From Candidatus Terraquivivens yellowstonensis (GTDB taxonomy: Archaea; Thermoproteota; Nitrososphaeria_A; Caldarchaeales; Wolframiiraptoraceae), in contig JAKCEW010000010.1 of the NCBI GenBank assembly GCA_023539445.1, positions 1-29,926 of the forward strand: a stretch of DNA of 29,926 nucleotides, written 5' to 3'. The first letter of the stretch is position 1. The number at the start of each line of letters is the position of its first letter. Under the pieces are notes generated by a model. It had not been told where the DNA came from. It did no database searches and worked only from the letters and a program-made list of their open reading frames with translations. Below are positions 2,908-29,926 of the stretch, in pieces. A program made the position numbers and the translations under genes.

Positions 2908-3682
2908 AAAAAGATTGCCGGAGGTCGGTGAGGTAGTCATCGGGACTGTGAAGAGGATTGACAAGTTTGGTGCTTACGTCTCATTGGATGAGTACGATAA
3001 GGCCGATGCCTTCATACATGTTTCTGAGATTTCGCTAAGATGGGTGAGGAACATCAGAGATTACCTTAGAGAAGGGCAGAAAGCAGTATTCAAAGTGTTA
3101 CGCTCTGATCCGACAACCATGCAGGTTGACCTCTCTTTGAGGAGGGTCTCAAAGAGGGAGAAGGTAGAAAAACTGATTTTATGGAAGAAGAAGCAGAAAG
3201 TCAAAAGGGTAATAAAACTTTTAGCGGAAAAGACTGGGCTTAATAGGGCGGAGCTTGAGAAGACTTTTCTCGAGCCTATAAAAGGGAATGAAGTTGAGCT
3301 TTACGATATTTTTGAAAGGCTGACAAAGGATGAAACAATCCCTGATTTTTTAAAGAACTTACCAGAGAATGTTCTTAACGCTTTGAAAGAGATCGTAAAG
3401 CAGGAGATAAAGAGGAAGAGCGTCGTGAATAAGGGCATACTTGTGCTTTACTGTCAATCCGGGAACGGTGTTGTGATTATCAGGAATGCTATCAAGGAAG
3501 CCATGTCGCTTGCAGGCAAGGACCAAAACGTGACAATAACGGTCATAGGACCTCCCAGGTACCTTCTCAAGGTAGAGGCAGAGGATAGTGAAACGTCCGA
3601 GAAACTATTAAACCAGGCGGCGGAGAGGTGTATAGAGTACGTAGTCAGCAAGGGAGGAAAAGGAGAGTTCAAGAAAAGTTGA
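2900..3682 (+). CDS. eif2a: Translation initiation factor aIF2 subunit alpha
   Basis: 260 aa, normal length for archaeal aIF2-alpha, the tRNA-proximal subunit of the heterotrimer that carries initiator Met-tRNA to the ribosome. The N-terminal S1/OB domain (about residues 1-85) shows GEVVIGTVKRIDKFGAYVSL and AFIHVSEISLRWV. A helical middle domain follows, then the C-terminal alpha/beta domain that contacts the gamma subunit (about 175-260). ATG at 2900 overlaps the end of eS27, and the TGA stop overlaps the TTG start of Nop10, so the gene sits inside a translationally coupled operon. Confidence 0.96.
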   Translation: MSEKRLPEVGEVVIGTVKRIDKFGAYVSLDEYDKADAFIHVSEISLRWVRNIRDYLREGQKAVFKVLRSDPTTMQVDLSLRRVSKREKVEKLILWKKKQKVKRVIKLLAEKTGLNRAELEKTFLEPIKGNEVELYDIFERLTKDETIPDFLKNLPENVLNALKEIVKQEIKRKSVVNKGILVLYCQSGNGVVIIRNAIKEAMSLAGKDQNVTITVIGPPRYLLKVEAEDSETSEKLLNQAAERCIEYVVSKGGKGEFKKS

Positions 3683-25663: not shown

Positions 25664-25993
25664 ATGATGGAATTTTGCCCGAACTGCGGAAAGGTTCTGA
25701 CGCTTGTGAAGAAGTCAGACACTGTTGTACTTGTATGCAAAAAATGTGGCTTCGAAAAGGTTGTGGAGAAAGCCGTGACTCAGGTGGCTTCAAAGAAGAA
25801 GGCAAAAGTTCCAACAGTCGAAAAGGAGGCACCTTCCGAAGAGGAAGTGTTACCTACGGTCGATGTCATATGCCCTGAATGCGGGAACAATAAGGCTTAT
25901 TGGTGGACTGTACAGACAAGATCTGCCGATGAACCTATGACGACCTTCTTCAGGTGTACACGTTGCAAGCATACGTGGAGAGAATATGGTTAA
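25664..25993 (+). CDS. tfs: Transcription factor S (TFS, cleavage-stimulating factor)
   Basis: 109 aa. Two zinc ribbons are joined by a basic/acidic linker. The N-terminal ribbon is CPNC and CKKC (residues 5-8 and about 26-29). The C-terminal ribbon is CPEC and CTRC (about 73-76 and 98-101). The C-terminal ribbon holds the hairpin QTRSADEPMTTFFRC, whose Asp-Glu pair reaches the polymerase active site to stimulate RNA cleavage in stalled complexes, as in TFIIS. AGGTGATTA precedes a double ATG. It lies 74 bp after rpo11 and overlaps the 3' end of the convergent HTH gene by 4 bp. Confidence 0.95.
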   Translation: MMEFCPNCGKVLTLVKKSDTVVLVCKKCGFEKVVEKAVTQVASKKKAKVPTVEKEAPSEEEVLPTVDVICPECGNNKAYWWTVQTRSADEPMTTFFRCTRCKHTWREYG

Positions 25994-26718
25994 ACCAGAA
26001 GTAGGCATTTTTTCTTACTGCCCGGTGGTAGAAGGACTTTTTTCCAAAGTTGTTCCTTTGCCATAATGCTGAACAGACCAGTTACCGATGCCCCCCTCTT
26101 CTGGAGCATGCTGACCGCAGAATTTACTAGGGAATCAGAATTTAGGAAAGAAGATATCATGAGTACGCTGTCCTTGCTCGACACCACGTTTTTTGGTAAC
26201 CACAGCTTGAACTTCTCTACGAATCCTGGAATCTTATACGTCAGCGTTATGGCCTCCTCATCATCCCAAAGCGGTCTTTCACTCAATAACAATATCCTCC
26301 TGTCTACGGTGATCGCCGAGACGGCCGATAACGGGATGCTGTGCACGTCTAAGGGCATTATGGCCGTCAGCTTGCTACCGGAAAATTCATTCATTATGAA
26401 GAAGTTGATCAACTTGAGCATGCTTGGGTTCGAGACGAGTTCGTAAACATTCACACCCTCATCACTTATCAAAGCCTTCTCCCTAATGATCTCCGCCATG
26501 TCTATAATCGGTGCAACTTTCTCGATGAGTTTCTTTACATTTTGGTTTCGTGGTACCGTTTTGTTTTTTATGTAACGGTTGAGTGTAGAAGTGGGTAAAC
26601 CGGTCATTTTGGATAGTGTTTTGTAATCGTACTTCTGTTTAAGAAGCTTGAGCAAATCAAGCGCTACAGTTTCCATACCATGCATTAACGGTGCACTTTT
26701 TACATATGTTTTAACCAT
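25990..26718 (-). CDS. HTH protein with degenerate phosphoribosyltransferase-like domain
   Basis: 242 aa. The N-terminal segment LKLLKQKYDYKTLSKMTGLPTSTLNRYIKNKTVP (about 23-56) is an XRE-type helix-turn-helix. The rest looks like a type I phosphoribosyltransferase fold: TAIMPLDVHSIPLSAVSAI, and then SVLMISSFLNSDSLVNSAVSMLQKRGASVTGLF where the PRPP loop should be. In active enzymes that loop has two acidic residues and a T/S-G pair; here it reads ISSFLNSDS, so catalysis is unlikely and a ligand-sensing regulator is more plausible. Archaeal HTH-PRTase regulators of this general build are known (GfcR, for example). A perfect palindrome lies just before the start. Confidence 0.65.
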   Translation of the reverse strand: MVKTYVKSAPLMHGMETVALDLLKLLKQKYDYKTLSKMTGLPTSTLNRYIKNKTVPRNQNVKKLIEKVAPIIDMAEIIREKALISDEGVNVYELVSNPSMLKLINFFIMNEFSGSKLTAIMPLDVHSIPLSAVSAITVDRRILLLSERPLWDDEEAITLTYKIPGFVEKFKLWLPKNVVSSKDSVLMISSFLNSDSLVNSAVSMLQKRGASVTGLFSIMAKEQLWKKVLLPPGSKKKCLLLV

Positions 26719-26735: not shown

Positions 26736-26917
26736 ATCCACCAACTATATGATAAAGCTTTTTGCTCAAAACATTTTGCGGTAAAAATCATATACGCATC
26801 AAGTATTATCAGCTAGTTGTCTGATCACGCTAAAAGACTTTAATCACCCTCTAGACCGAAAATTAAAACACCCCTTAATTTTTTCCAATAAGATTCAGGT
26901 AAAAGTGAGGTGATGCG

Positions 26918-27052
26918 ATGATGGATAACATAAGTATTGATATATCAGTTGATGTTAGGAAGTCCAAGCTTAGAGGAGAGGGGTCTAGACCGATTAAAAT
27001 GTGTGACATGGAGGCTGATTTTCATGAGCATATATGCTCAGCATATGCTTGA
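26918..27052 (+). CDS. Small ORF, 44 aa, possibly a gene remnant
   Basis: Preceded by a strong GAGGTGAT (26907-26914), the ORF starts at a double ATG and begins MMDNISIDISVDVRKSKLRG. It ends with HICSAYA inside the tandem palindromes. I recognise no family. The excellent ribosome site combined with a very short product suggests the 5' part of a gene cut off downstream, but a genuine small protein is possible. Confidence 0.35.
   Translation: MMDNISIDISVDVRKSKLRGEGSRPIKMCDMEADFHEHICSAYA
27025..27048. repeat. Two adjacent perfect palindromes
   Basis: TGAGCATATATGCTCA (27025-27040) is a perfect 16-bp palindrome. GCATATGC (27041-27048) follows without a gap. They share the GCATAT core, so the array reads as repeated half-sites. 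Confidence 0.6.
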
Positions 27053-27203
27053 GTGTAGGAGTCTGTGGTAGGAGGTTTGGAAGTTCCGACATAGACGGCA
27101 ATAACTTCTTTTTCTATTTTTAGCCAAATATTTCGCCATAAAGCTCCTTTCAACCACCTTAACTGAAACTCTTCTTCCCTCTTGAAATTTATTATCCTTA
27201 GTT

Positions 27204-27660
27204 TTACGCTGAACTTAGCGAAGTCTTGTTTAAAAGTTGACTTTTATAGAATGACCTATTTCCAGTAAGAAAATAACTTACAGCAGCGGAAAAAACTGTG
27301 AAAATTATAAAGCTTGGACCCACGGTTTCAGCAACCAACGTTATGCTCGTCAAAAGGCTTTTGCTCGTTGCAGCTAACATCGCACTCATCGCCAGCATAA
27401 CACATAGAACGCGCGGCTCAAAGTTTAAAACCTGTGCATAAATAAGCCCAAGTGCTCCGCCAATGTATAATGATGGGATGAAAAGGCCACCGCTTCCTCC
27501 AAAATTTAGGGTAATGCTTGTGGCAACTATTTTTAGAATTAAAAGCACAATCAGGGTTGTCAAACTTGGTTCTCCTAATTTGGCTGTGATTGTTTTGTGT
27601 ATGAAATCATAACCCAAGCCAAGCACCTCGGGATAGACTAAGCCCATAACCCCGAAGACC
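27204..27660 (-). pseudogene. ClC chloride channel, C-terminal fragment
   Basis: About 150 residues matching the C-terminal part of a ClC channel/antiporter. VYPEVLGLGYD opens it, NFGGSGGLFIPSLYIGGALG carries the conserved GGxFxP anion-site motif, and MLAATSKSLLTSITLVAETVG and the last helices follow. A complete ClC has about 400 residues or more, so the N-terminal half, including the GSGIP and GKEGP anion-binding motifs, is missing. The first ATG (27647) lies inside the conserved region. The homology runs on to roughly 27655-27668, where the sequence becomes cas1 on the other strand. It cannot form a normal pore. Confidence 0.8.
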
Positions 27661-28070
27661 CATTCAACATATCGCTAAACTACATGTATTCACTGCTTGC
27701 ATCTCAGATATGGTTCGCCGTTGAACTTTCAGGTCTTGACCCCTTCATAGGATACCTCCACGAAGATAATAATAGGAGGCCAAGCCTAGTCATGGATTTT
27801 ATGGAAGAGTTCAGGCAGCCAGTAGTGGATAAGCTACTTATAACGTATTTTACAAAACATAAGGTTGAGAATGTTATAGATGAGAATAAGAGATTGAGTG
27901 ATGAATTTAGGAAGGTTTTGCTTAGAATGTTTTTCGAGGAACTCGATAGACAGGTCACATTCATGAATAGGACAATATCGGTTAAGGGTCACATGTACCT
28001 CCAGCCGAAGAGACTAGCTAAATATCTTCTCGCATTAACCTCATCATATACGCCTTATAACGTGATCTAA
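27660..28070 (+). pseudogene. cas1: cas1, C-terminal fragment
   Basis: About 136 residues corresponding to the C-terminal part of Cas1, the integrase of CRISPR spacer acquisition. The frame reads PFNISLNYMYSLLAS (with no start codon before ATG 27684), then the hallmark GLDPFIGYLHED and RPSLVMDFMEEFRQPVVD, which hold the metal-binding His and acidic residues. A full Cas1 has about 300-340 residues. The N-terminal beta domain and the first catalytic Glu are missing. An in-frame stop at 27639-27641 closes the frame. cas2 starts directly after its stop, as in an intact adaptation operon. Function is probably lost unless another cas1 exists. Confidence 0.85.
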
Positions 28071-28349
28071 ATGTACACTCTTGTTATATATGATATAACG
28101 GATGATATGTTAAGACTCAGGATTGCTGAGGCATGTAAAGAATTCGGATTGGTTAGGATTCAGAAAAGTGCTTTTCTGGGTAGAATAGACTTCCAGAGGA
28201 GGAAGGGCCTCAGGCATAGGCTTAAGGAGGTGCTCGGCAATAATCCCGGGAACATACAGATATTCCTGATATGTGAGGCCGATATGAGGTTCAGGGAGAT
28301 GATCGGAGAGCCGACAGGATACGAGGAAGAGGGAATAATGTTCTTGTAA
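28071..28349 (+). CDS. cas2: CRISPR-associated endoribonuclease-like Cas2
   Basis: 92 aa ferredoxin-like protein. The N-terminal strand LVIYDITDD carries the conserved Asp (residue 8). RLRIAEACKEFGLVRIQKSAFLGRI follows the Cas2 pattern, and IQIFLICEAD forms a later strand. Cas2 dimers bridge two Cas1 dimers in the spacer integration complex. The ATG immediately follows the cas1 stop codon, so the two were translated together. The gene looks intact although its partner is truncated. Confidence 0.93.
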   Translation: MYTLVIYDITDDMLRLRIAEACKEFGLVRIQKSAFLGRIDFQRRKGLRHRLKEVLGNNPGNIQIFLICEADMRFREMIGEPTGYEEEGIMFL

Positions 28350-28359
28350 GGCGACCCTC

Positions 28360-28941
28360 ATGGAGCAGGAATTCATAACACCGATACATGTAAGAGACTA
28401 CATATTCTGTCCAATGTTGTTTTATCATAAGTACGTTGTCGGCCTGCTAGAGCCAATGACGGAGATGATGCTGGAAGGATCCCGAGAGTATTTGAGGGAT
28501 GAAGCTCGATGGAGGGAGCGGAAGACATTATTAAATGAGAGGAGAATTAAAGCTGATCGAATGTTATTTTCATACCCTCTGACAAGCAAAAAATACAGGA
28601 TTCATGGTATTGCGGATACGATATTTTGGGTCAATCGTAAGATGAATATACTGGAAATTAAGTATGGTAGCTCCTCAGGCCCTTTTAGAAACCACTTATA
28701 TCAAGCGGCTGCATACGCATTGATGGCTGAAGAAGAGTTTAGTCAACCGGCCTATAAGATCATATTGTTCTATAAGACTCATAGAAAATGGGTTGAGCGG
28801 AGGTTTACGATGCAGCTTCGTGCCTACTTGATAAAAGTGCTGGAAAGAGCTTGGGAGGTCCTTGAGGGGAAGTTGGTTCTGGAGCCTAAGCCGAGGGCCC
28901 CTTGTGCTTCATGTTGGTATAGGCGATTCTGTTATCCATAA
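28360..28941 (+). CDS. cas4: CRISPR-associated exonuclease Cas4
   Basis: 193 aa RecB-like nuclease with an iron-sulfur cluster. One Cys lies near the N-terminus (IFCPMLFYH, residue 17) and three at the C-terminus in CASCWYRRFC. The nuclease core has GIADTIFW (Asp), ILEIKYG (Glu and Lys) and HLYQAAAYALM (QxxxY motif). Cas4 trims prespacers and selects those next to a PAM. It starts 10 bp after cas2 and appears complete. It is followed by the CRISPR leader. Confidence 0.92.
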   Translation: MEQEFITPIHVRDYIFCPMLFYHKYVVGLLEPMTEMMLEGSREYLRDEARWRERKTLLNERRIKADRMLFSYPLTSKKYRIHGIADTIFWVNRKMNILEIKYGSSSGPFRNHLYQAAAYALMAEEEFSQPAYKIILFYKTHRKWVERRFTMQLRAYLIKVLERAWEVLEGKLVLEPKPRAPCASCWYRRFCYP

Positions 28942-29079
28942 GGAGTCAGACCTCTAAAGAAAAGATAGGTTTATTAATAACCGATGGATGCTTATAAATG
29001 AATCCCACGATAGGGCTCCCACCAGCATCCTCGGTACAGAATCCCGGAATTAAGGCCTAGAAAGCTAGAAAATGGCTCG
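28942..29079 (+). promoter_or_regulatory. CRISPR leader with promoter
   Basis: A 138-bp non-coding stretch separates cas4 from the first repeat. TTATAAAT at 28992-28999 predicts a start near 29022, so pre-crRNA would begin about 58 nt before the first repeat. The heptamer GAATCCC occurs twice (29000-29006 and 29039-29045). The second continues GGAATTAAGG and resembles a worn repeat. These may be adaptation or leader-recognition motifs. Confidence 0.6.
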
Positions 29080-29926
29080 GAATCTCAAAAAGAGAATTGA
29101 AAGTCGACGACGCCCAAGGGCACCTCCGTCAATTGCCCCTTCAGAATCTCAAAAAGAGAATTGAAAGATTGGACTAAGGCCTGTTGGAAAGCCTTTCGAG
29201 TTTCCGCGGTGAATCTCAAAAAGAGAATTGAAAGAACGTTCTTCTCGCAGTGCACCACCACGCACCTCGAGAAAGAATCTCAAAAAGAGAATTGAAAGTA
29301 GTTATCGGGGCAACGCCCGTTTGGTTTACTGTTTTCCATTGAATCTCAAAAAGAGAATTGAAAGACATGCACTTGGATACCCGTCCCATATCCCCCGGGA
29401 CGGGGAATCTCAAAAAGAGAATTGAAAGCTACCGTGGCAGTAGTCAAATATTCTTTCAAGTGCCTTTTCCAAGAATCTCAAAAAGAGAATTGAAAGAAGT
29501 ATTTCATCTTCCAGTCTTTATTACTCCTGACCAAATTTATGAATCTCAAAAAGAGAATTGAAAGAATTTACAAGCATGTGGTGCAGGGGCGAGGTAACGG
29601 TCAGAATCTCAAAAAGAGAATTGAAAGAAAGCAGGCGGTCAAATCCTCATGGCGCCCATGACTCCTCCCCTTGAATCTCAAAAAGAGAATTGAAAGACAA
29701 ACCATATTTTAAATTTGTCGAACTGGTCAGGTTTTTCCGAATCTCAAAAAGAGAATTGAAAGGCTGGCGCTACTGCACCTACCCTTGCTCCAGCATACTG
29801 TCTAGAATCTCAAAAAGAGAATTGAAAGACCAGGTAAGTTCCCTAAAGGGGGGAGCCCAGGAGATGCCCTAGAATCTCAAAAAGAGAATTGAAAGTCGGC
29901 AGGTCCAGCAGGTTCAGGGTCGTTTC
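29080..29926 (+). CRISPR. CRISPR array, 13 repeats visible, runs off the edge
   Basis: The 24-nt repeat starts GAATCTC, continues with five A, and ends GAGAATTGAAAG. All 13 copies are identical. They start at 29080, 29144, 29211, 29275, 29341, 29405, 29473, 29541, 29604, 29673, 29739, 29805 and 29872. Twelve complete spacers are 39-45 nt long and all different; a thirteenth is cut by the window end. TCTC and GAGA can form a short stem around the A-tract. ATTGAAAG is the 3' end that becomes the crRNA 5' tag in archaeal type I systems. This orients transcription left to right, away from the leader. The repeat resembles those of thermophilic crenarchaea, so a type I-A-like system is the best guess. 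Confidence 0.97.

What the first reader, a model, noticed from the sequence alone, without database searches (positions are those of the whole stretch)
27640..27690. clc and cas1 both lose their N-terminal halves at one breakpoint
Seen: a minus-strand ClC fragment and a plus-strand Cas1 fragment meet head to head. Recognisable ClC sequence ends, and recognisable Cas1 sequence begins, within about 15 bp of each other (27650-27665). Each gene keeps only its C-terminal part. An inversion with one break in clc and one in cas1 would give exactly this picture, as would a deletion or an assembly chimera. If real, the organism broke its adaptation gene beside an array that still has perfect repeats.
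Basis: partly seen in the sequence, partly recalled or inferred. Interest (0 to 1): 0.7.

Follow-up and report, generated by a model that had tools for sequence, protein, structure and literature searches.

The report
Two gene remnants at one breakpoint
In a draft genome of an uncultured archaeon, a chloride-channel gene and a CRISPR spacer-acquisition gene each lost their front part and now meet at one point, most likely through an ordinary deletion (or, less likely, a sequencing artefact), and the genome carries another intact acquisition gene elsewhere.

Summary
The minus-strand ClC reading ends, and the plus-strand Cas1 reading begins, at about 27648-27656. In relatives' genomes, clc homology stops at window 27634-27655 and cas1 homology starts at 27646-27657. 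What remains is 149 C-terminal codons of a ~430-codon ClC and 140 of a ~340-codon Cas1. The csa1 gene that precedes cas1 in the relatives examined is also gone. Cas2, Cas4, a leader and 13 identical repeats follow intact.

The assembly (95.8% complete) holds no other N-terminal half of this clc and no csa1/cas1 N-terminus of this lineage, so there is no reciprocal junction. That weakens inversion and favours one deletion between divergently oriented clc and csa1-cas1, possibly at a few bases of microhomology. A library or assembly chimera cannot be excluded without reads.

The claim that the organism "broke its adaptation gene" is only half right. This locus's cas1 is broken, but contig C21 carries an intact csa1-cas1-cas2-cas4 with cas7, of another lineage and with another repeat. 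Identical repeats are also ordinary: the same 24-nt repeat occurs in several other archaea. This is an ordinary pseudogenised second CRISPR locus.

The parts
25990..26718 (-). left-flank backbone gene, adenine phosphoribosyltransferase-like with HTH; conserved in all five genus-mates
26831..26843 (+). TAAAAGACTTTAA: last stretch shared with genus-mates, where it lies just upstream of a tRNA-Leu gene; a near-copy (TAAAATACTTTAA) opens own contig C34, which carries that tRNA
26844..27203 (.). unassigned stretch between the conserved flank and the clc remnant; no family matches
27204..27653 (-). clc pseudogene remnant: C-terminal 149 codons with the natural stop, N-terminal ~270-280 codons missing
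27648..27656 (.). breakpoint interval joining clc and cas1 remnants (possible microhomology of a few bases, AACCCC)
27648..28070 (+). cas1 pseudogene remnant: C-terminal 140 codons, no start codon before ATG 27684; N-terminal ~200 codons missing
28071..28349 (+). cas2, intact
28360..28941 (+). cas4, intact
28942..29079 (+). leader, similar to the leaders of the Bathyarchaeota AUK082 arrays (L087)
29080..29926 (+). CRISPR array, 13 identical 24-nt repeats GAATCTCAAAAAGAGAATTGAAAG, runs to the contig end

Best explanation
A real deletion. An ancestral locus carried clc on the minus strand and a csa1-cas1-cas2-cas4 operon plus array on the plus strand, divergently oriented. One deletion with one end inside clc and the other inside cas1 removed the N-terminal ~270-280 codons of clc, everything between, csa1 and the first ~200 codons of cas1. 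The ends were joined with no or very short homology (end-joining or replication slippage, inferred). Both genes are now pseudogenes. The cas operon has lost its 5' end, so cas2 and cas4 are probably poorly expressed and the array is probably frozen, unless the intact Cas1 on contig C21 acts on it in trans. Shown: both truncations, the shared breakpoint, loss of csa1, no reciprocal junction in the assembly, and a second intact adaptation set. Inferred: the divergent ancestral order, the join mechanism and the functional state.
For: Breakpoint fixed by several independent clc carriers and several independent cas1 carriers, agreeing within about 20 bp on the clc side and 12 bp on the cas1 side. 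csa1 lies directly upstream of cas1 in the relatives checked (L029-L034, L087-L096) and is missing here; the only csa1 in the genome is the C21 one, 33% identical. No N-terminal clc and no second N-terminal cas1 of this lineage in the genome. A deletion between divergent genes gives this head-to-head layout in one step. Both remnants are still open and about 60-78% identical to the closest relatives, as after a recent event. Microhomology-mediated end joining is documented in archaea (PMC12019639).
Against: No relative was found with clc next to csa1-cas1, so the ancestral order is unseen. No close relative carries either gene in this place. Without reads a chimeric molecule is not excluded; own contig C34 also stops at the left edge of this variable segment, so the assembly is not straightforward here.
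Confidence: 0.6

Rival explanations
1. Library or assembly chimera: the clc side and the cas1 side come from two places, or two organisms, joined in a chimeric molecule or read.
For: The genome is a draft in 35 contigs. Whole-genome-amplification chimeras are mostly inverted with intervening deletions and often join at 2-21 complementary bases (PMC1855051), which fits a join with little shared sequence. The junction is seen in no other genome searched. clc is absent from four of five genus-mates. C34 ends at the left edge of the variable segment.
Against: k-mer assemblers need far more shared sequence than the few bases possible here (own knowledge). The missing halves are not elsewhere in this bin, though they could be in another bin. 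Nothing shows that this genome was amplified. GC changes little across 27650.
Confidence: 0.22
2. Inversion with one break in clc and one in cas1.
For: Gives the same local picture. The related L087 locus has inverted arrays flanking the adaptation genes, a possible substrate for inversion.
Against: The reciprocal junction is absent: no N-terminal clc, no second cas1 or csa1 N-terminus of this lineage in a 95.8%-complete assembly. Inversion between arrays would break in repeats, not in cas1.
Confidence: 0.06
3. Two separate events: a cas locus already lacking its 5' end was inserted into, or transferred together with, a clc fragment as part of an acquired patchwork segment beside the tRNA-Leu site.
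For: The segment right of 26843 is absent at this place from all five genus-mates; clc and this cas1 lineage are both foreign to the genus pattern. Near-duplicate 13-mers lie at window 26831-26843 and at the start of C34.
Against: No integrase or transposase seen in the segment; no match to phage or plasmid collections. Two losses ending at one point need one joining event anyway.
Confidence: 0.12

Closest known systems
csa1-cas1-cas2-cas4 locus with flanking arrays of Candidatus Bathyarchaeota isolate AUK082 (L087, JAGGUU010000171.1)
   Same: Cas1 C-terminus 74%, Cas2 79%, Cas4 67% identical; same 24-nt repeat; similar leader; DNA alignable from 27646 to the array
   Different: L087 has intact csa1 and cas1, a second inverted array upstream of csa1 and interference genes downstream; no clc in the held stretch
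Intact type I-A-like locus on own contig C21 (L036)
   Same: same genome; csa1-cas1-cas2-cas4, cas7 and an array
   Different: Cas1 only about 52% identical over 65 residues to the remnant; different repeat (GAATCCGAAGAGGAATTGAAAG); cas1 complete
ClC genes of G064, G070, G122, G280, G316 (same phylum)
   Same: about 75-77% identical over the remnant
   Different: about 420-450 codons where complete in the held stretch; not beside cas genes in the stretches read

Membership tests
ClC chloride channel/transporter (PF00654) | full-length conserved membrane domain | tested here: not met
   only profile positions 212-345 of 346 remain; a pseudogene remnant
Cas1 integrase (PF01867) | N-terminal domain plus the C-terminal domain with all three metal ligands (Glu, His, Asp) | tested here: not met
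   positions 184-281 only; the His and Asp motifs remain (invariant H38 and D50 in alignment A1), the upstream Glu motif present in relatives as EAEA..YW is missing; the roles of these residues are taken from general knowledge of Cas1
type I-A adaptation module | csa1-cas1-cas2-cas4 in order | tested here: not met
   csa1 and the cas1 N-terminus absent; cas2 and cas4 present
CRISPR array | regularly spaced identical repeats with unique spacers and a leader | tested here: met
   13 identical 24-nt repeats, spacers 39-45 nt, leader similar to L087's
microhomology-mediated deletion | short identical sequence at both parental ends | tested here: inconclusive
   6 bp (27648-27653) fit both parental families about equally (0.69 and 0.63 identity), but the true parents are unknown

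The most novel reading that the evidence does not exclude
The array beside the broken cas1 still gains spacers because the Cas1 on C21, of another lineage and normally paired with another repeat, serves it in trans.
Probability: 0.1. Interest if true: 0.4.

Novelty: new member of a known kind. Interest (0 to 1): 0.15.

Why it matters
It is a clean example of how a second CRISPR locus decays: the acquisition gene is lost while array, leader, cas2 and cas4 still look intact. It warns against calling a locus functional from perfect repeats, or a genome acquisition-deficient from one broken cas1.

Tried and rejected
Reciprocal junction: searched the own genome for ClC, Cas1, csa1 and the clc N-terminal part; none found beyond the known places. 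Same junction elsewhere: viral contigs by exact pattern and 398 genomes of the phylum by DNA: none. Mobile-element origin: no phage or plasmid DNA match. Self-targeting spacers as the cause: no convincing spacer match in the other fetched loci. GC composition: too even across 27650 to separate the sides. The genome-contig scan did not show the own genome's name.

Full report
What is there. The window is the whole of contig C26 in a draft genome of 1,158,832 bases in 35 contigs, 95.8% complete. Members of the same family recovered with names are Candidatus Geocrenenecus, Wolframiiraptor and Benthortus, so the genome most likely belongs to the Wolframiiraptoraceae (PMC9246946); the genus itself is not named by the tools. 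On the minus strand, 27204 to about 27653 reads as the C-terminal part of a ClC protein with its natural stop. On the plus strand, about 27648 to 28070 reads as the C-terminal 140 codons of Cas1, followed directly by cas2, cas4, a leader and 13 identical repeats running to the contig end.

Where the break is. Full-length clc and cas1 genes from relatives were placed in register on the window. The clc families fit to the left and the cas1 families to the right; the best breakpoint is 27648, with positions up to 27656 nearly as good. Independent genomes agree: the main clc DNA matches end at window 27634-27655 and the main cas1 matches start at 27646-27657. Six bases, AACCCC at 27648-27653, are compatible with both sides. 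That permits a short microhomology but does not prove one, because the true parents are not known.

What is missing. The relatives' clc is about 420-450 codons where complete; about 270-280 N-terminal codons are gone. The relatives' Cas1 is about 340 codons; about 200 are gone, including the segment with the first metal-binding glutamate motif (EAEA..YW in relatives; its role is from general knowledge of Cas1). In the relatives checked csa1 lies directly upstream of cas1; here it is gone too. The closest intact locus, Bathyarchaeota AUK082 (L087), has array, csa1, cas1, cas2, cas4, array; the window is alignable to it from 27646 rightwards at 68% DNA identity.

Where the other halves are. The genome has one other Cas1, intact, on C21, with csa1, cas2, cas4, csa3-like and cas7 genes and a different repeat, GAATCCGAAGAGGAATTGAAAG. 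It is the lineage shared by three genus-mates at 60-65% identity, not the window's lineage. No other ClC, no N-terminal clc piece and no second csa1 exist in the assembly. An inversion would leave the N-terminal halves joined elsewhere; their absence speaks for loss, that is, a deletion between divergent genes. In a 95.8%-complete draft this is strong but not final.

Setting. All five genus-mates share the sequence left of 26843 and then continue into a tRNA-Leu gene, with further genes beyond. In this genome that tRNA sits at the end of contig C34, whose first 13 bases nearly repeat window 26831-26843. The clc-cas segment is therefore a variable segment at this place. clc is absent from four mates, and the fifth has a distant one. 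The segment has no recognisable integrase, and no match in phage or plasmid collections.

Function. With its 5' end and csa1 gone, this adaptation operon most likely cannot acquire spacers by itself. The array may still be read for interference, or served in trans by the C21 proteins, but Cas1, repeat and leader tend to co-evolve (PMC4390879) and the C21 repeat differs. Perfect repeats say little about activity: the same repeat occurs perfectly in L087, in Wolframiiraptor and in genus-mates, and two arrays of one mate have no cas genes nearby.

Artefact. Amplification chimeras can look like this (PMC1855051), and reads were not available. I give this about one chance in five.

Verdict.

Noticed in passing
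window 26831-26843 and L080 (C34) 3499-3511: Near-identical 13-mers (TAAAAGACTTTAA / TAAAATACTTTAA) bound the variable segment; C34 ends exactly there and carries the tRNA-Leu that follows this site in all five genus-mates. Either an insertion at the tRNA promoter or an assembly break.
   Followed up: partly
L075 3629-3852 and L076 11295-12024 (genus-mate G005): Two CRISPR arrays with the same 24-nt repeat as the window and no cas genes recognised in the 8-16 kb held around them.
   Followed up: partly
L071 (genus-mate G003, contig C2): In this mate the same tRNA-adjacent place holds other variable genes, apparently CRISPR type III-like by reading (not tested with profiles), suggesting a defence-gene hot spot.
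   Followed up: no
L087 1135-2266 and 5403-6606: Bathyarchaeota locus with inverted arrays of identical repeats flanking csa1-cas1-cas2-cas4; a natural substrate for flipping the adaptation operon.
   Followed up: no
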